In this document: piece by piece, positions 17,279 through 54,463 of the stretch | Layout of the letters: each line of letters starts with the position of its first letter | Position numbering within the stretch: the first letter of the stretch is position 1 | Assembly: GCA_017503735.1 (NCBI GenBank) | Contig: JAFVSN010000036.1 | Coordinates: 1-59,301 of the forward strand | From: Lachnospiraceae bacterium | GTDB lineage: Bacteria > Bacillota > Clostridia > Lachnospirales > Lachnospiraceae | Length of the DNA: 59,301 nucleotides | Reading direction: 5' to 3' | Position numbers and translations under genes: made by a program | The notes under the pieces: model-generated | The model's input: the letters and a program-made list of their open reading frames with translations, nothing else | Databases searched by the model: none | Told to the model about the DNA's origin: nothing

Positions 17279-17375
17279 CTTCTTTGTGGTTGTATGCACT
17301 GTTGTGCGACTATCTCAGCAAAAATCTTACATTTTGTCAACAAACAGGGCTGCCGCCGGAAATTGCTGCAAGTAA

Positions 17376-17634
17376 AAGGGCGCAGAACTTTTCGATATTA
17401 GTGCACGCAAATATAATAGCCGGAATTGATTTGTTCGTTTTTTGAATTTGCCCGAAGGGCCGCGTCCTTAGCTGAGTCGAAATCACCCCTTAGAAAAGAC
17501 TAGGCGCGAGGTCGCTCCCGAGCGTCCTAGTCGTTCTTAGAGGAAGTTTGACGAAGCGTTGCGATGTGAAAAAAACGACAAATCAATTCCGGCTATTTAA
17601 AATTCAACACTCAATCGAAAAGTTCTGCGCCCGA
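17376..17634 (+). ncRNA. Element A: long-hairpin structured RNA candidate
   Basis: This 259-nt element fills the 505-bp gap between two minus-strand genes. It has nested inverted repeats: a perfect 19-bp outer pair (17378-17396 with 17614-17632) and a second perfect 19-bp pair (17416-17434 with 17578-17596), which T/A tracts extend with one bulge. The interior holds blocks shared with element B: AGTCGAAATCACC at 17475-17487, a hairpin closed by GACTAGG/CCTAGTC with GAGG facing CCCGA in its tip, and a 27-base block at 17537-17563. I chose the plus strand by analogy with B. A clear promoter was not found. It might belong to the raiA RNA class, but I could not test this. Confidence 0.6.
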
Positions 17635-17666
17635 GACCTTCGTCCCCGGTGACAGCCCGTGCCCGG

Positions 17667-18353
17667 CTACTTCTCCGGCTCCATAAGGGCGGTGAGTCCC
17701 GCGATATCTTCTACCGGCAGGGAGAATACCACTGCCTTTGCCTCGGTCTGCGGACCTGCCTTTTCCATAATGGCACGCATAATGTCCGCACGTTCGGACT
17801 TTCTCGTGGCAATATAAATCATTTCCTTCTCCGGACTGATGGACACTCCGAAAAACTTGGCATCTTCTTCTCTTCCGGTTCCCTTAGCATGGACTACCGT
17901 ACCGCCTCTGGCACCGACTTCTCTTGCCGCATCCATCACCATATCCGAACAACCCTTTTCCGCAATTACCGTAATCAAAGAATATTTTGCTTCTTTCATT
18001 TTCACATCCTCCGTCGCCAAAACTTCCTGACCTTCCGTCAGATACTTCATGCTCCAGGTCCCTCCGATGCTTTCCATCGGAATCGACATTGCCACACCGG
18101 TTCCCGGCAAATTGATTCCCATCCGGCTTACCAAGCCTCCGAACAAGGAATCCACCTTGCCTGCCGCAACTACTGTCTGAATTATAATCTTCTCGTTATT
18201 TTCAATCCCGAGGTAATCCAAAATACTCTTACTTGCGGTTCCGTGTCCCAACATTTCCGTCATATGTGCAATACCGTTTTGTTTTAAAAAATCTACATAA
18301 TCTTTTTCATAGCTGCGATTCAGAATCATTAGAACCATGTTATATCTACTCAT
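17667..18353 (-). CDS. PII-like nitrogen-regulatory family protein
   Basis: This 228-residue protein appears to be two GlnB/PII-like halves in tandem; the second half has YSLITVIAEKGCSDMVMDAAREVGARGGTVVHAKGTG, which matches the PII fold with its T-loop region. PII proteins bind nucleotides and signal to partner transporters or enzymes. The start at 18353 lies inside the end of the DUF1538 gene (8-bp overlap) with GGAGG upstream, so the two proteins are translationally coupled. The likely role is to sense a ligand and control the membrane partner. The usual uridylylation Tyr is not evident. Confidence 0.75.
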   Translation of the reverse strand: MSRYNMVLMILNRSYEKDYVDFLKQNGIAHMTEMLGHGTASKSILDYLGIENNEKIIIQTVVAAGKVDSLFGGLVSRMGINLPGTGVAMSIPMESIGGTWSMKYLTEGQEVLATEDVKMKEAKYSLITVIAEKGCSDMVMDAAREVGARGGTVVHAKGTGREEDAKFFGVSISPEKEMIYIATRKSERADIMRAIMEKAGPQTEAKAVVFSLPVEDIAGLTALMEPEK

Positions 18354-19911
18354 CGTCATCCTCCAATTCAAAGATTTCGTTATCAAAGATATCCACAACA
18401 GTTTCCGTTACCTCTACCGGAACCTCAACCTCTACTGCCTGCTCTGCCTTGCGAAGCTTAAGCTTATACACCAGACCGAGAATCTGAATCGCAATGAGCG
18501 GTGTCATAGCTACCATGGCAACCACGCCGAAGGCTCCCGTTACTACATCTCCGCCCACACCGGTACATACACCGATGGACATCGGAAGCAAAAACGTTGC
18601 CGTCATCGGGCCGGAAGCAACACCACCGGAGTCAAATGCAATTGCCGTAAAAATCGGCGGTACAAAAAAAGACAATACAATCGCAATCAGATATCCCGGT
18701 ACCAGAAAATACATAATCGGAAGATCCGCCACAATACGAAGCATGGAAAGTCCCACGGACACGGCCACACCGATGGAAAGACTGGTACTTAACGCCTTTG
18801 CCGGAATAGCACCTGATGTCATTTCATATACCTGCTTATTCAGGACATGTACCGCAGGCTCTGCCGTAACGATAAAGTAACCGATAAGAGCTCCCAACGG
18901 TACTATAATCCAACGGTAGGAAAGACCTCCCAGCTCTCGTCCGATATAATTTCCTACCGTCATAAAGCCTACGTTTGCTCCGCAAAGGAACAATACCAAC
19001 CCGATAAACGTATAAATAAAACCGACACTGATACGGTAAATATTTTCTTTCTTCAATTTTAACCGAAAAATCTGGAACAATGCAAAGAACGCCATAATCG
19101 GAAGCAACGCCTTCACCACTTCCAATATGTATTCCGGGATTTCGTGAGAAAACAGATTCCACAAATCCTTCGAAGTCTCCACCGTCGGAATCTCCACCGG
19201 CGTGTAGTTACCGCCCTCTACCCGGAAGAACAGACCGAGAAGCATTACCGCCAGAATCGGTCCTATGGAACAAAGGGCAACAAGGCCAAAACTGTCATTT
19301 TGTGCCTCGCTGTCACTTCGAATGGATGCAACACCTATACCAAGCGCCATAATAAACGGCACCGTCATCGGTCCCGTGGTTACGCCACCGGAATCAAAAG
19401 CCACCGCCAAAAAGGACTTCGGTACAAACATTGCCAATGCAAACACTGCCACATAAAAGAAAATCAATAAATAATTCAGCTTCCATTTAAACAAAATACG
19501 AAGCATCGCTACCACCAAAAACAATCCAACACCGCCGGCCACCGAAAAAACGATAACCTGGTTCGGAATATTCGGCACCTGCTCTGCAAGGACCTGTAAA
19601 TCCGGCTCGGATATGGTCACAATGGCACCTACCAAAAAGCTGATCAGCACAATAAACCAAAGTTTTCTGGACTTGGTCACTGCCGAACCGATATGCTCGC
19701 CTACCGGTGTCATGGAAAGATCCGCACCCAGGGTAAACATCCCCATACCGAGAATCACCATTACCACGCCAAACACAAACGTCATTAACAAATCCGTCGG
19801 CACAGGAACAATAGTAAAACAAAGGACAAAAACAATAGCCGCAATCGGCATTACCGACGCAAGGGATTCTTTTACCTTTGAAAATAGAATTGTTCTGCTG
19901 TTTCGGAACAA
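18346..19911 (-). CDS. DUF1538 integral membrane protein, probable transporter
   Basis: This 521-residue protein is an internal duplication. Each half has a segment AFDSGGV(T/A)(T/S)GPMT, and the first half has the family mark MFTLGADLSMTPVGEH followed by SEPDLQVLAEQVP. These define DUF1538, a membrane family often paired with a PII-like protein; transport is presumed from the fold but no substrate is established. The start codon is TTG, supported by GGAGG seven bases upstream and a consensus promoter behind it. It overlaps the PII-like gene by 8 bp. Confidence 0.88.
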   Translation of the reverse strand: MFRNSRTILFSKVKESLASVMPIAAIVFVLCFTIVPVPTDLLMTFVFGVVMVILGMGMFTLGADLSMTPVGEHIGSAVTKSRKLWFIVLISFLVGAIVTISEPDLQVLAEQVPNIPNQVIVFSVAGGVGLFLVVAMLRILFKWKLNYLLIFFYVAVFALAMFVPKSFLAVAFDSGGVTTGPMTVPFIMALGIGVASIRSDSEAQNDSFGLVALCSIGPILAVMLLGLFFRVEGGNYTPVEIPTVETSKDLWNLFSHEIPEYILEVVKALLPIMAFFALFQIFRLKLKKENIYRISVGFIYTFIGLVLFLCGANVGFMTVGNYIGRELGGLSYRWIIVPLGALIGYFIVTAEPAVHVLNKQVYEMTSGAIPAKALSTSLSIGVAVSVGLSMLRIVADLPIMYFLVPGYLIAIVLSFFVPPIFTAIAFDSGGVASGPMTATFLLPMSIGVCTGVGGDVVTGAFGVVAMVAMTPLIAIQILGLVYKLKLRKAEQAVEVEVPVEVTETVVDIFDNEIFELEDDDE

Positions 19912-24639: not shown

Positions 24640-26073
24640 TTAATATGCCTTACCCCAGTATACCAGACTCTTTGCCGGCTTACCGCAGCAAACACAAGTC
24701 TTTGCGATTTCTTCCTGTGCAAACGGCATACAACGGGAAGTAACACCCGCCTTTTCCTTTAACGCTTCTTCACAGGCCAGTTCGCCGCACCACATCGCCT
24801 TGATGAAACCGGACTTATTCTCAGCCACATCCAGCATTTCCTCCATGGTGGTTGCGCTGTAGGTGTGCTCGTCGCGATGTACTCTTGCACGCTCCAACAT
24901 TTCCTTCTGCATGGTGGCAAGAAGCTCGCCTACCTTTGCTTCCAGTTCATCTAAAGATACGGTAATCTTCTCATTGGTATCACGTCTTGCGATAACCGCC
25001 TGATTTGCCTCGATATCCTTCGGACCGATTTCGATACGAAGCGGCACACCGCGCATCTCATGCTCCGCAAACTTCCATCCCGGAGACTTGTCGGAATCGT
25101 CTACCTTTACGCGGAAGCCCTTTAAGATATTGCCAAGCTCGTACGCTTTATCCAGAACGCCTTCCTTATCCTGACGTACCGGAATCACCACTGCCTGTAC
25201 CGGAGCAATTGCCGGCGGCAACACAAGACCGCTGTTGTCACCGTGTACCATGATAACCGCACCGATGAGACGTGTGGTCATACCCCAGGAGGTCTGGTGC
25301 ACATACTGTAACTTATTTTCCTTATCCGTATACTGGATATCAAACGCTTTTGCAAAGCCGTCACCAAAGTTATGGCTGGTACCGGATTGTAATGCCTTAC
25401 CGTCGTGCATCAATGCTTCGATGGTATAGGTTGCTTCCGCACCTGCAAACTTCTCCTTATCGGTTTTACGACCGCGCACCATCGGAATTGCAAGAATCTC
25501 TTCACAAAAATCCGCATAGAGATTTAACATCTGGATGGTTCTTTCCTCCGCTTCCTCTGCGGTTGCATGAGCGGTATGACCCTCCTGCCACAAAAACTCC
25601 ATGGAACGAAGGAACGGACGGGTGGTCTTTTCCCAACGAACCACAGAACACCACTGGTTATATACCTTCGGCAGATCACGGTAAGAACCGATAATCTTGG
25701 AATAGAAATCACAGAACAAGGTCTCGGAAGTCGGACGTACACACATACGCTCCTGCAACTTCTCACCACCGCCGTGGGTTACCCATGCAACCTCCGGTGC
25801 AAAGCCTTCTACGTGATCCTTCTCTTTGTTTAACAAACTCTCCGGAATGAACATCGGCATATACACATTCTCTACGCCGGTCTCCTTAAAGCGACGATCC
25901 AATTCCTTCTGAATGAGCTCCCAAATCGCATATCCTGCCGGGCGAATAATCATACAACCCTTAATACCGGAATACTCAACCAATTCTGCCTTCTTCACGA
26001 TGTCCGTGTACCATTGTGCGAAATCCTCTTCCATAGAGGTAATCGCCTCTACCATTTTCTTGTCCTTTGCCAT
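24640..26073 (-). CDS. proS: Prolyl-tRNA synthetase, archaeal/eukaryotic type
   Basis: This 477-residue class II synthetase charges tRNA-Pro with proline. It has motif 2 around [21 protein letters not shown], motif 3 near [19 protein letters not shown], an anticodon-binding domain, and the short C-terminal zinc-type domain ending CVCCGKPA...YWGKAY, all features of the archaeal/eukaryotic-like ProRS found in some bacteria. It lacks the large editing insertion of the E. coli type. The start at 26073 follows AAAGGAGG; the longer frame runs into a hairpin element. A proline T-box lies about 640 bp upstream. Confidence 0.95.
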
Positions 26074-26097
26074 TTTCTTTCCTCCTTTTCTAAGACT

Positions 26098-26325
26098 GGA
26101 ACTTTTCATATGTATGCTATCTTTTCTCTCCTCCCGGATGTAACACTTTCTAATTATTCCGATCGAATATTTCCTCAAACGACACAACCGGTTCCAACGC
26201 GACATCCATGCCGCGTGTCACCTCGCTTAAACGTCCTGTTTAAGCGTTGCTGTCAACCTTCGGAATAATAAGAAAGTCTAACATCCTCACGAAAGTTCAA
26301 AGATAGCATACATATGAAAAGTTCC
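26098..26325. repeat. Element C: 228-bp long-hairpin element upstream of proS
   Basis: A perfect 27-bp inverted repeat (26098-26124 with 26299-26325) encloses further paired blocks (GGATGT with ACATCC, CTTTCT with AGAAAG, ATTATTCCG with CGGAATAAT) and an interior with a perfect CGCTTAAAC/GTTTAAGCG hairpin. The interior pair CGCG-GCAT/ATGT-CGCG contains a G-U pair only on the minus strand, which weakly favours the proS transcript as the functional strand. I see no shared core with elements A and B and no clear target-site duplication. Confidence 0.6.
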
Positions 26326-26417
26326 TCGTTTACTAAAATGTCGAAGATAACTGCGCAAAAGAATCCTCTTCCATTCCTCACAATTATCTTCTTATGTCCG
26401 TCTGAGGGCCCCTTTCC

Positions 26418-26712
26418 TTTCCGCGCGCCGGCTCGGGCGTGGCGGATTCTTACGTTCGCAAAGTGAATCTTGCCTGTAACCTTAGCCCACGCGGGCATTA
26501 TTCTTTTTTTGCTTTTCCCGAAGGGGCGCGCCTTTAGCGCAGTCGAAATCACCTCTTAGCGGTTCTAAGTCTCGAGGCCACACCCGAGAGACGTTTAGAA
26601 CCGGTTAGAGGAAGTTCGACGGAGCGTTGCGCTTTGCAAAAAAAGAAAAGATGGCCGCAGGGTTAAGGTTGTCTGACATATCACCGCGAACGTAAGAATG
26701 GGCGGCGCGCAC
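26418..26712 (+). ncRNA. Element B: long-hairpin structured RNA candidate, homologous to A
   Basis: Outer arms ATTCTTACGTTCGC (26446-26459) and its complement (26686-26699), and inner arms TTCTTTTTTTGC (26501-26512) and its complement (26636-26647), are joined by a longer imperfect stem. The core repeats the blocks of element A: AGTCGAAATCACC at 26541-26553, a hairpin GGTTCTAA-GTCTC with GAGG facing CCCGA in its tip, and a 27-base block at 26605-26631. The imperfect stem has three G-U pairs on the plus strand that would be A-C mismatches on the minus strand, so the plus strand is the likely RNA. That is opposite to proS, whose leader surrounds it. Confidence 0.62.
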
Positions 26713-26714
26713 AT

Positions 26715-26998
26715 AAAAAGGTCCCTCCTACGGGAAACCCGTAGAAGGGACCGAAATTCGTCGGCGGTACCACCCTTCTTAGCCGGTCTGTCCGGCTCTC
26801 TCACACAGCCTGCACTGTGTTCCCCCGATATCGCAGGGTCTGCGCCGCGCTTCTCACGCGGGACTCCGAGGCCGGTTCCATCTGCAATATCCCGGAGGCT
26901 CTCAGCTTACGGAAAATCCGTATCCTCCTTCTCTGTACAGACTGCTCTGATGTACTATTCCTCTTCTTCGTCACGTTGTTTCGAAAACCCGAAATCTA
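26715..26998 (-). promoter_or_regulatory. Proline T-box leader of proS
   Basis: On the minus strand the leader shows GACGAAGAAGAG at the base of stem I, a specifier region GGAA-CCG-GCC, AGAGAGCCGGACAGACCGGC in stem III, and the T-box sequence AAGGGTGGTACCGC. A terminator follows (26715-26752): a 15-bp stem from GGTCCCTTCTACGGG, then TTTTT. The CCG specifier encodes proline, which fits proS as the controlled gene. Uncharged tRNA-Pro would stabilise the antiterminator. About 640 nt lie between the terminator and the proS start, far more than usual. Confidence 0.9.
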
Positions 26999-51871: not shown

Positions 51872-54463
51872 ATGAAACATGTCGTTATCGGTATGCTGGC
51901 ACACGTGGATGCCGGAAAAACAACTTTATCGGAAGCAATGCTTTTTTCCACCGGTGCCATCCGTACGCTGGGCCGCGTCGATAACAAAAATGCGTTTTTA
52001 GATACCAATTCCATGGAACGGGCAAGGGGCATTACCATTTTTTCAAAACAGGCAAGACTGTCCTTGAAAAACTTTACGGTTACGCTCCTTGATACCCCGG
52101 GACACGTGGATTTTTCCGCAGAAATGGAGCGGACTCTTCAAGTGTTGGATTATGCGGTTCTTGTCATCAGCGGTGCCGACGGTGTTCAAGGTCATACCAA
52201 GACCCTGTGGCAGTTGCTTAAACATTACCGCATTCCAACCTTTCTTTTTGTCAACAAAATGGACCAGCAAGGCACAAACAAACCGCTTCTTTTAGAACAG
52301 CTTCGCAATTTGCTTTCCGACTCTATTGTTGATTTTTCGGTGCCGTCCGCCATCGACACGGAAGCGGTTGCATTGACCGATGAAGCTCTTTTGGACAAAC
52401 ATCTGTCCGGTGAAGAAATTACCGATGCCGATATTGCAGCTGTCATCGCCGAACGGAAATTGTTCCCGTGCTATTTCGGTTCCGCCCTTCGGGTAACCGG
52501 TGTCGAAGCACTCCTTACAGGGTTGGATACCTACATGAAACCGAAAGAATATCCGGAATCCTTCGGTGCAAAAGTATATAAAATCACACGGGATTCCCAG
52601 GGCAACCGCCTGACCCATTTAAAAATTACCGGTGGCACCTTAAGTTCCAAAATGTCCATTACCGATACAGAAAAAATCAATCAAATCCGGCTTTATTCCG
52701 GCGACAAATTTTCCTCTGCAAACGAAGTAAATGCCGGAGAAATTTGCGCCGTTACAGGACTCGAATCCACCTTTGCGGGGCAGTCTCTCGGCGATGATAT
52801 TCCGTCAAATATTCCTTTATTGGAACCGGTCATGACTTACAAACTTCTTATTTTAGACGGAACAGACCCTTTGCTTGCGATTCCGAAGCTTCGTTTGTTG
52901 GAAGAAGAAGACCCGAAGCTCCACGTGGTATGGAACGAATTTTTAAAAGAAATTCATCTTCAAGTTATGGGTGCCGTTCAGATAGAAATTCTGAGAACCG
53001 TGATTGCGGAGCGTTTCGGAATCACGGTAGATTTCGGTGCCGGCAATATTGTTTACAAAGAAACCATTACCGACACGGTAGAAGGTGTCGGCCATTTTGA
53101 ACCCTTGCGTCATTATGCGGAGGTACATTTGATTCTTGAACCGGGAGAACCGGGAAGCGGAATCACCTGTAAACTCGATTGCGAAGGAAGCGGACTGGAC
53201 CGCAACTGGCAACGTCTGATTCTGACCCACCTGAAGGAACGCACTCATCGCGGTGTTCTTACCGGTTCACCTCTGACCGATGTGGTTATCTCTTTGGTAG
53301 GCGGTCGTGCGCACCAAAAACATACGGAGGGCGGAGATTTCCGACAAGCCACCTATCGCGCCATTCGTCAGGGTTTGATGCAGGCTACGTCTGTCCTTTT
53401 AGAGCCTTATTACAGCTTTACGTTAGAATTACCTCAGGCCTCCGTAGGACGTGCCATGACGGATTTGGAACGGATGCAGGCAGAGTTTGAATTAAAGGAA
53501 GCCGATGCTTCCGCTGATTCCGCTGTAATTACCGGATTCGCTCCGGTTTCTGCTTTTACCGACTATCAAAACGAATTTATTGCTTATACCAAGGGCCTCG
53601 GAAAACTCTATCTCGGTCAAGGCGGTTACAAGCCTTGCCATAATGCAGCGGAAATAATCGAATCCATGGGCTACGATCCCGAAAGAGATACAAGAAACCC
53701 GTCTTCCTCCGTTTTTTGCTCCCACGGAAGCGGCGATATTGTGCCGTGGAACGAAGTATTTGCGCATATGCACATTGAAAGCATTCTGGACGCACGAAGG
53801 AAAGGCATTGCCGGTGAACCTTCCCGCTCCGGCCAGTCGGTTCCCAACACTGTTTCTGCCTTGGATGCTGCCCTCGGCACGGAAGAAATCGATGCAATTC
53901 TTCATCGCAGCGGCTTTGCTAACAGCAATACCAAGGAAGCAAAACATTATCGTCCCTTTGCAAAAACAAGAAGTTATGACCCTGTAGCCTCCGGCTATAA
54001 GGGCAAAGAAACCGTCCAAAACAGCGGTACTTCCTATCTTCTGGTGGACGGCTATAACATTATTTTTTCCTGGAACGAGTTAAAGGAACTGGCAAAGACC
54101 AATTTAGATGCTGCCAGAAGCAAGCTTCTTGATACCATGTGCAATTATCAGGGAATGAAAAAATGTGAATTGATTGTAGTATTTGACGCTTACCGTGTGC
54201 AAAACCATGCCACGGAATCCTTAGATTACCACAATATCCATGTGGTTTATACAAAAGAAGCGGAAACCGCCGACACTTATATCGAACGTTTCGCCCACGA
54301 ACACGGACGAAAACACTATGTAAGGGTCGCCACCTCGGACCGTCTGGAACAGGTTATTATCACCGGACAAGGCTGTCATATGGTATCTGCCGGAGAATTC
54401 GAACAAGAGGTGAAAGCAATGGAAGATATGATTCGGGAGGAATATTTAGAAAAAAATTTGTAA
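51872..54463 (+). CDS. TetM/EF-G-like translational GTPase fused to a Rae1/YacP NYN nuclease domain
   Basis: Residues 1-700 form a ribosomal GTPase of the TetM/EF-G type: P-loop AHVDAGKT (10-17), RGITI (52-56), DTPGH (74-78), NKMD (128-131) and later EF-G-like domains. Residues 721-863 match the Rae1/YacP NYN domain (LLVDGYNIIFSW, VVFDAYRV, VYTKEAETAD, VATSDRLEQ), keeping likely metal Asp residues 726, 772, 801 and 823. B. subtilis Rae1 is an endoribonuclease that cuts mRNA in the ribosomal A site, the site TetM enters. This fusion may therefore deliver an RNase to stalled ribosomes. The ribosome binding site is AAGGAG; the gene follows the esterase gene. Confidence 0.87.
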   Translation: MKHVVIGMLAHVDAGKTTLSEAMLFSTGAIRTLGRVDNKNAFLDTNSMERARGITIFSKQARLSLKNFTVTLLDTPGHVDFSAEMERTLQVLDYAVLVISGADGVQGHTKTLWQLLKHYRIPTFLFVNKMDQQGTNKPLLLEQLRNLLSDSIVDFSVPSAIDTEAVALTDEALLDKHLSGEEITDADIAAVIAERKLFPCYFGSALRVTGVEALLTGLDTYMKPKEYPESFGAKVYKITRDSQGNRLTHLKITGGTLSSKMSITDTEKINQIRLYSGDKFSSANEVNAGEICAVTGLESTFAGQSLGDDIPSNIPLLEPVMTYKLLILDGTDPLLAIPKLRLLEEEDPKLHVVWNEFLKEIHLQVMGAVQIEILRTVIAERFGITVDFGAGNIVYKETITDTVEGVGHFEPLRHYAEVHLILEPGEPGSGITCKLDCEGSGLDRNWQRLILTHLKERTHRGVLTGSPLTDVVISLVGGRAHQKHTEGGDFRQATYRAIRQGLMQATSVLLEPYYSFTLELPQASVGRAMTDLERMQAEFELKEADASADSAVITGFAPVSAFTDYQNEFIAYTKGLGKLYLGQGGYKPCHNAAEIIESMGYDPERDTRNPSSSVFCSHGSGDIVPWNEVFAHMHIESILDARRKGIAGEPSRSGQSVPNTVSALDAALGTEEIDAILHRSGFANSNTKEAKHYRPFAKTRSYDPVASGYKGKETVQNSGTSYLLVDGYNIIFSWNELKELAKTNLDAARSKLLDTMCNYQGMKKCELIVVFDAYRVQNHATESLDYHNIHVVYTKEAETADTYIERFAHEHGRKHYVRVATSDRLEQVIITGQGCHMVSAGEFEQEVKAMEDMIREEYLEKNL

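What the first reader, a model, noticed from the sequence alone, without database searches (positions are those of the whole stretch)
17376..17634. Two homologous long-hairpin elements (A here, B at 26418-26712) with a conserved core and covarying stems
Both elements share AGTCGAAATCACC, a 27-base block (17537-17563 and 26605-26631, differing at only two positions) and an internal hairpin whose tip has GAGG facing CCCGA. The internal stems differ completely in sequence between A (GACTAGG/CCTAGTC) and B (GGTTCTAA/TTAGAACC) but pair in each. The outer arms also differ yet pair perfectly in each copy. Conserved unpaired-looking blocks plus compensatory stems point to a structured non-coding RNA rather than a DNA repeat. 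Length and Clostridial setting could fit the raiA RNA class, but the consensus could not be checked here.
Basis: partly seen in the sequence, partly recalled or inferred. Interest (0 to 1): 0.78.

Follow-up and report, generated by a model that had tools for sequence, protein, structure and literature searches.

The report
Mobile long-hairpin repeat in gut Lachnospiraceae
The two long hairpins are copies of an uncatalogued DNA repeat, about twenty in this genome, that mostly sits behind gene ends in gut bacteria and keeps a conserved folded core inside arms whose sequence differs from site to site.

Summary
A and B share a 139-position core; the same genome holds 21 model matches. G001-G007 hold 12-37 each, G035 of another genus 16; 23 of 397 sampled family genomes match. 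No Rfam 15 family fits, raiA included. In 25 matches from 14 distant genomes all 31 core pairs show two-sided changes, 94.3% of cells pair, and 0 of 500 shuffles match.

'RNA rather than DNA repeat' is not supported. It is dispersed: one 334-bp copy with its arms is 95% identical at two unrelated sites, and site B is empty in G009 and G002. Isolated G.U and A.C mismatches in the arms are equally common (54 vs 52); the same count in RNase P RNA gives 32 vs 0. A gene points into the right end of 87 of 109 copies. Arms stay with the site, while core and apical-hairpin type are randomised among sites.

Best reading: a new family of non-autonomous mobile hairpins at terminators, with arms kept paired by DNA template switching. 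Mover and benefit are unknown.

The parts
17345..17660 (+). Copy A with its outermost, terminator-like stem (GGGCTGCCGC 17347-17356 facing GGGCTGTCAC on the minus strand, 17649-17658)
   Evidence: the copy found at two sites carries the same kind of outer stem inside the shared stretch
17378..17396 (+). A: outer left arm, pairs perfectly with 17614-17632
17415..17443 (+). A: inner left arm, pairs with 17570-17597
17439..17577 (+). A: conserved core (model R1, 141.8 bits)
17498..17532 (+). A: apical hairpin, type 1
   Evidence: the G006 copy at the same site carries type 2
26418..26712 (+). Copy B, between the T-box terminator and the TwoAYGGAY element / ProRS gene
26434..26453 (+). B: conserved outer motif CGGGCGTGGCGGATTCTTAC; outer arms 26446-26459 / 26686-26699
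26505..26645 (+). B: conserved core (model R1, 147.3 bits)
26560..26603 (+). B: apical hairpin, type 2
   Evidence: G003 and G005 copies at the same site carry type 1
26129..26293 (-). TwoAYGGAY RNA (RF01731, 101.6 bits): a second dispersed long-arm hairpin, neighbour of B, not the same family
26743..26977 (-). T-box leader (70.9 bits, below gathering 93); its terminator hairpin read by eye at 26720-26752
24640..26073 (-). Prolyl-tRNA synthetase gene, downstream of T-box, B and TwoAYGGAY in its transcription direction
   Evidence: Pfam; start codon read by eye
17667..18398 (-). Gene with P-II domain whose 3' end points into copy A

Best explanation
A and B are copies of a non-autonomous mobile hairpin element of roughly 260-335 bp. 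SHOWN: a conserved folded core sits at the tip of long inverted arms; copies are dispersed, about 20 in this genome; one copy including its arms lies at two unrelated sites in two related genomes; copies lie mostly just behind the 3' end of a gene pointing into them, often beside or inside terminator-like stems. SHOWN: arms stay with the site, while core polymorphisms and the apical hairpin type are shuffled among sites. INFERRED: a trans-acting enzyme not identified here copies the hairpin into terminator regions; arms are kept paired by DNA template switching between them rather than by selection on RNA; cores are exchanged by gene conversion between the conserved blocks flanking the apical hairpin; the harm of insertion is small because the target is a transcript end and the element brings a terminator-like stem.
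For: Copy number and distribution. Covariation of the core. Movement: L255 (G009) vs L263 (G001), 95.2% over 334 bp with unrelated flanks, while G001 also keeps a copy (L270) at the site of L255. Four more pairs share arms at 79-85% at sites with unlike flanks. Empty site B in G009 and G002. Gene context: right-hand gene points in for 87 of 109 copies with a called right gene, its stop a median of 98 nt from the GTTGCG block; flanking genes (-,-) 30 vs (+,+) 13. Terminator-like stem on the minus strand of the right flank in 49 of 118, shuffled mean 7.0. DNA-like arms: isolated mismatches GU 54 vs AC 52 in 110 copies, RNase P by the same criterion 32 vs 0 (Fisher p 3e-8); single changes GU 121 vs AC 136 and 239 paired double changes over 72 pairs of copies with alignable arms; adjacent double changes 10 vs 3.8 expected, p 0.004, one pair for each of 20 sites. 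Core shuffling: apical type agrees in 38 of 88 same-site pairs vs 35.0 +- 4.7 permuted; identity excess of same-site pairs 0.00-0.06 in the core vs up to 0.25 in the arms. Template switching as maker and maintainer of hairpins: PMC8794818, abstract and opening text read.
Against: No transposase or reverse transcriptase of the two families tested tracks the copies: Y1_Tnp in 2 of 9 copy-rich genomes, RVT_1 in 3 of 9, one of them below the cut-off. No transposase recognised by eye between inverted pairs. No target-site duplication seen in the one case examined. No match of A in plasmids or of B in phages; the one viral-contig hit is chance. Many sites are shared by several species (29 groups holding 86 of 118 copies), which fits a useful element as well. 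Some core positions favour the + strand: consensus G.U in 66 of 67 at one pair and 44 of 67 at another; total core GU 180 vs AC 25. In one search single changes to other mismatches (352) outnumber the paired doubles (239), and 84 double changes are unpaired, so pairing is far from fully repaired; the 72 pairs are not independent.
Confidence: 0.6

Rival explanations
1. A multi-copy structured RNA that works in trans, for example by binding a protein through the conserved core; the copies are gene copies and the long arms are processed by RNase III.
For: Strong cross-genus covariation of the core; conserved G.U positions on one strand; strongly conserved unpaired blocks such as TTAG and GAAATC.
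Against: In 30 of 99 copies with both genes called, the flanking genes transcribe only the other strand, so the copy would need its own promoter; promoters were not tested, but left flanks differ between copies. WC-dominated core pairs of A2 lack the G.U excess of an RNA helix (10 vs 17; RNase P 83 vs 8; TwoAYGGAY 10 vs 1; but A3 24 vs 9). Core sequence follows neither genome nor site.
Confidence: 0.17
2. A cis-acting 3'-end module: a domesticated bidirectional terminator or mRNA-end hairpin, kept because it ends or protects transcripts of adjoining genes.
For: Position behind gene ends, inverted pairs in intergenic DNA, terminator-like stems at the ends, 29 site groups shared between species. 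Equal GU and AC could come from selection on transcripts of both strands.
Against: The core is far more elaborate than a terminator needs; the site is empty in some sister species; deletion derivatives persist; transversion-type mismatches (86) are tolerated nearly as often as transition-type (106).
Confidence: 0.2
3. raiA or another family already in Rfam.
Against: No match at gathering threshold; none at E up to 5 for A; only chance-level ones besides the T-box for B; none at gathering for five copies with the extra domain; for 15 loci of distant copies only TwoAYGGAY and T-box neighbours and a plant miRNA model (35 bits, cut-off 101) outside the core of L186.
Confidence: 0.01

Closest known systems
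TwoAYGGAY RNA (RF01731)
   Same: In these genomes it is also a multi-copy dispersed hairpin (18 copies in G000, 33 in G004) with a conserved core in long, changing arms and nested terminator-like stems in copies looked at; its flanking arms too lack a G.U excess (GU 12, AC 22, 25 copies). One copy lies beside B.
   Different: Its model does not match A or B. Distribution differs: 0 copies in G002 and G035, which are rich in our element, and 11 in G009, which has 1 of ours. Its core pairs do show GU 10 vs AC 1.
REP / BIME palindromes with RAYT (Y1) transposases (properties recalled)
   Same: Dispersed palindromes in 3' intergenic regions, sometimes as inverted pairs.
   Different: Several times longer, with a conserved multi-helix core; Y1_Tnp found in only 2 of 9 copy-rich genomes.
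MITEs (RUP, Correia, BOX, ERIC and the like; recalled)
   Same: Short, non-coding, dispersed, hairpin-forming, presumably moved in trans.
   Different: A MITE keeps its terminal repeats and varies inside; here the arms vary by site and the tip is conserved. No TSD and no partner element found.
Group IIC introns (recalled)
   Same: Folded element, oriented insertion at transcription terminators.
   Different: No Rfam intron match; RVT_1 not found in 6 of 9 copy-rich genomes.
raiA RNA (RF03072)
   Same: Length and phylum only.
   Different: No match.

Membership tests
raiA RNA (RF03072) | Match to the Rfam covariance model | tested here: not met
   no match, both strands
Structured non-coding RNA (general) | Covariation of stems across homologues | tested here: met
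   31 of 31 pairs with two-sided change, 0 of 500 shuffles; the alignment was fitted to the model
Structured non-coding RNA (general) | G.U pairs much commoner than A.C mismatches in helices | tested here: inconclusive
   arms 54 vs 52 against RNase P 32 vs 0 by the same criterion; WC-dominated core pairs A2 10 vs 17, A3 24 vs 9, A3 without two G.U-consensus pairs 14 vs 10. Core total favours GU (180 vs 25)
Structured non-coding RNA (general) | A discrete transcript | not testable with these tools
   no RNA-seq at hand
Mobile element | Same copy at unrelated sites | tested here: met
   L255 and L263, 95.2% over 334 bp, flanks unrelated; 1 clear and 4 weaker pairs among 118 copies
Mobile element | Empty sites in relatives | tested here: met
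   site B empty in G009 and G002; no element at site A in G001, G002, G004, G007, G009
MITE of a DDE transposon | Conserved terminal inverted repeats and target-site duplication | tested here: inconclusive
   arms are not conserved in sequence between sites; ends resemble terminators; no TSD recognised in one case
REP/RAYT | Y1 transposase in the genome | tested here: not met
   no match in G000, G001, G002, G004-G007; the assemblies are incomplete
Retroelement (group II intron, retron, DGR) | Reverse transcriptase in the genome | tested here: not met
   no match in G002, G004-G007 and G035; the assemblies are 72-97% complete
TwoAYGGAY (RF01731) | Match to the Rfam model | tested here: not met
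   one search matches only the neighbouring element, not A or B

The most novel reading that the evidence does not exclude
A new class of mobile element whose recognised part is a folded core at the tip of a hairpin: it enters terminator regions, and its long arms are not carried ends but are made and re-made at each site by fold-back (template-switch) synthesis, so that core and arms have separate histories. Several unrelated cores (this one, TwoAYGGAY, the L166 core) may share that life style.
Probability: 0.22. Interest if true: 0.85.

Novelty: new variant of a known kind. Interest (0 to 1): 0.6.

Why it matters
A folded element found in 21 of 334 sampled genera of this gut family is missing from Rfam 15. 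It also offers a test case for an old problem: compensatory changes are commonly read as proof of RNA function, yet here they occur in the arms with no G.U preference, as expected if DNA template switching repairs hairpins. The separate histories of arms and core, and the like architecture of TwoAYGGAY (typed cis-regulatory in Rfam), suggest that some 'candidate structured RNAs' may be mobile DNA hairpins.

Tried and rejected
raiA and other Rfam families: no match.

Reverse transcriptase or Y1 transposase as mover: presence does not follow copy number. Other transposase families were not searched.

Autonomous element with the core at both ends: inverted pairs in G330, G263 and G090 enclose only ordinary genes or apparently non-coding DNA by reading the ORFs. 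The close pairs shown in G398, G262 and G035 are two hairpins a few hundred bases apart.

Spread by virus or plasmid: A has no match in plasmids, B none in phages; A was not run against phages nor B against plasmids. The one viral-contig match to a 17-base pattern (L171) has no model match.

Apical type as a genome-wide allele (concerted evolution): no association of type with genome, permutation p 0.63. Same-genome copies are no more alike than cross-genome copies.

Arms taken from the target at insertion: the empty sites in G009 and G002 hold only about 13 and 25 bp between the flanks and no arm sequence, so this is not supported at site B. G001's core-less hairpin at site B was read as a tip deletion, not an ancestor, because other deletion derivatives occur.

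Papers: searches listed no description of this element by title or abstract start (one search was for template switching). Of PMC2864571 and PMC8040213 I saw passages, of PMC8794818 the outline with abstract and opening text, of the others search listings only. Supplementary files could not be searched, so the candidate lists of PMC8040213 remain unchecked.

Limits: assemblies are incomplete; gene calls are longest-ORF heuristics; the sets and overlap (same organisms from two collections); 100 of the 111 matches in G001, G003-G007 and G009 were fetched (some at contig ends or not listed were left out), and none of the 37 of G002; site groups are single-linkage by flank similarity, and three of the 29 (with copies bearing the extra domain or L020) were left out; 2 of the 27 groups were same-arm, not same-flank, pairs; the RNase P control rests on matches below the gathering score; shuffles are mononucleotide.

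Full report
OBSERVATION. They fold far better than shuffles. A 27-base core block has 21 matches in the same 3.08-Mb assembly at up to 3 mismatches, with 0 for the backward control. A covariance model of the core (R1, 139 positions, 31 pairs) was built from 67 copies. These remain from the 78 anchor matches after dropping six named loci (five with an extra left domain, and the divergent L020), copies without the upstream anchor, truncated copies and duplicates. R1 finds 21 matches in the own genome at E up to 0.001.

WHERE IT OCCURS. Of 61 genomes (own plus 60 relatives), 10 have matches: own, 12-37 copies in seven congeners (G001-G007), 1 in G009, 0 in G008, and 16 in G035 of another genus. 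Of 397 sampled genomes of the family, 23 match, in 21 of 334 genera; only 8 candidates per genome were scored, so counts there are minima. In a class-wide sample of 391 only the own genome matched. A 17-base pattern in named genomes gave 71 loci, 55 of them titled Lachnospiraceae; 54 of the 71, all of them Lachnospiraceae, also hold the longer anchor, while the 16 loci with other titles do not. That the window is Lachnospiraceae is inferred from these titles. Rfam 15 has no family for the element.

ANATOMY. From outside in: often a terminator-like stem (GGGCTGTCGC-type motif; left 27 of 116 with 1.8 expected, right 38 of 116 with 3.8 expected, both in 21); in many copies an outer motif CGGGCGTGGCGRRYTCTTRC facing GYAAGARNGGG; arms with a median of 56.5 Watson-Crick pairs (110 copies, range 10-83); then the core. 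Own arms pair far better than arms taken from different copies (70 copies, mean score 89.8, lowest 31.5; 250 cross pairs, mean 40.0, highest 92.5). The core carries an apical hairpin of three sequence types in this genus and, across genera, a conserved C-GA-NNN...NNN-YGA-G tip and CTTAG blocks (read by eye). Some copies carry an extra left domain of about 85 nt (7 of 118; L036, L039, L040, L041, L057, an overlapping set). Core covariation across 25 matches from 14 distant genomes: 94.3% of cells paired, 31 of 31 pairs with two-sided changes, 0 of 500 shuffles, slid controls 37-44%; that alignment was fitted to the model.

DNA OR RNA. In RNA helices G.U should far outnumber A.C. In the arms the isolated mismatches are 54 GU, 52 AC and 86 others. 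RNase P RNAs from 24 family members, counted by the same criterion, give 32, 0 and 4 (Fisher p 3e-8 for GU vs AC; matches below the gathering score). Single changes between arms of like copies are 121 GU, 136 AC and 352 others, with 239 paired and 84 unpaired double changes over 72 pairs that are not independent. In WC-dominated core pairs the counts are 10 vs 17 in A2 and 24 vs 9 in A3, against 83 vs 8 in RNase P; A3 without two G.U-consensus pairs gives 14 vs 10. A few core positions are consensus G.U on the + strand, so the A2 core total is 180 vs 25. I read this as a core recognised in single-stranded form (RNA or DNA) on the + strand, inside arms kept paired at the DNA level. Clustered double changes in orthologous arms (10 adjacent vs 3.8 expected, p 0.004, 20 sites) fit template switching, a mechanism described in PMC8794818, but are modest evidence.

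MOBILITY AND INHERITANCE. Of 121 places (21 own, 100 fetched) 118 passed the anchors; they come from eight genomes. 86 of the 118 fall into 29 groups with similar flanks in different species. L255 (G009) and L263 (G001) share 334 bp at 95.2% including the terminator-like outer stem, with unrelated flanks beyond, and G001 also has a copy at L255's site. Four other pairs share arms at 79-85% where flanks do not match. Site B is empty in G009 and G002; G001 has the outer hairpin without the core; G006 has the matching hairpin with the core; G000, G003 and G005 share one set of inner arms and G004 has another; in G007 the contig ends inside the site, and G008 shows no element there. At site A, G006 has A's arms with the other apical type; deletion remnants exist in G003 and in a second G006 contig, at most a remnant in G005; G001, G002, G004, G007 and G009 show no element in the stretch read.

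SHUFFLING OF THE CORE. In 26 of the 29 groups, 88 same-site pairs agree in apical type 38 times, against 35.0 +- 4.7 when types are permuted within genomes; type is also independent of genome (p 0.63). Along the element, same-site pairs exceed random pairs by 0.10-0.25 identity in the arms but by 0.00-0.06 from the CCCGAAG block to the GTTGCG block. So arms mark the site and cores do not.

POSITION. With heuristic gene calls, the right-hand gene points into the element in 87 of 109 copies and the left-hand gene in 70 of 106; (-,-) 30 vs (+,+) 13 shows polarity. The right gene's stop lies a median of 98 nt from the GTTGCG block, about where the right arm ends. A terminator-like stem on the strand of that gene is found in 49 of 118 right flanks (shuffled mean 7.0); the other three flank/strand combinations give 20-26 of 115-118 (means 5.4-8.4). 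Inverted pairs (- then +) occur in several genera. B follows a T-box terminator, before the prolyl-tRNA synthetase gene.

NO MOVER FOUND. Y1_Tnp is found in 2 and RVT_1 in 3 (one below cut-off) of the nine genomes with 12 or more copies; no other family was searched. Inverted pairs up to 3 kb apart enclose no gene recognisable to me as a transposase (ORFs read by eye).

VERDICT. Real, undescribed as far as these searches go, and better explained as a mobile DNA hairpin family with a folded core than as a conventional non-coding RNA. The mover, the exact ends and any use to the host remain open.

Noticed in passing
window 26129-26293 (-); other copies such as L312-L341: TwoAYGGAY (typed cis-regulatory in Rfam) is a dispersed long-arm hairpin in this genus (18 copies in G000, 33 in G004, 30 in G006), and its arms at site B differ strongly between species while staying paired.
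   Followed up: partly
window 26090-26720: Between the T-box terminator and the prolyl-tRNA synthetase gene two unrelated dispersed hairpins (B and TwoAYGGAY) have accumulated; in G009 and G002 the same gap is about 13 and 25 bp.
   Followed up: yes
L166 (own genome C53:47106): The outer motif of the element encloses a different interior of about 170 nt; L168 looks like a deletion form of it. Possibly a second core family in the same outer frame.
   Followed up: no
L036, L039, L040, L041, L057; L281-L287 (overlapping sets): Copies with an extra conserved left domain (CGCGCCTCGCGAC...GTTCGCATGACTG...CTCACTTTGC) of about 85 nt; L321, with a TwoAYGGAY copy, contains a similar stretch by eye.
   Followed up: no
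window 51872-54463 (+): An EF-G/ribosomal-protection-type GTPase carries a C-terminal YacP-like NYN nuclease domain (Pfam).
   Followed up: no
L072 (1598-1855): Two near-identical copies of the element in tandem, 241 bp apart, inner arms included.
   Followed up: no
L179 (G367 C6:18000-36000): Three copies of a divergent subfamily within about 15 kb, with further copies on the same contig.
   Followed up: no
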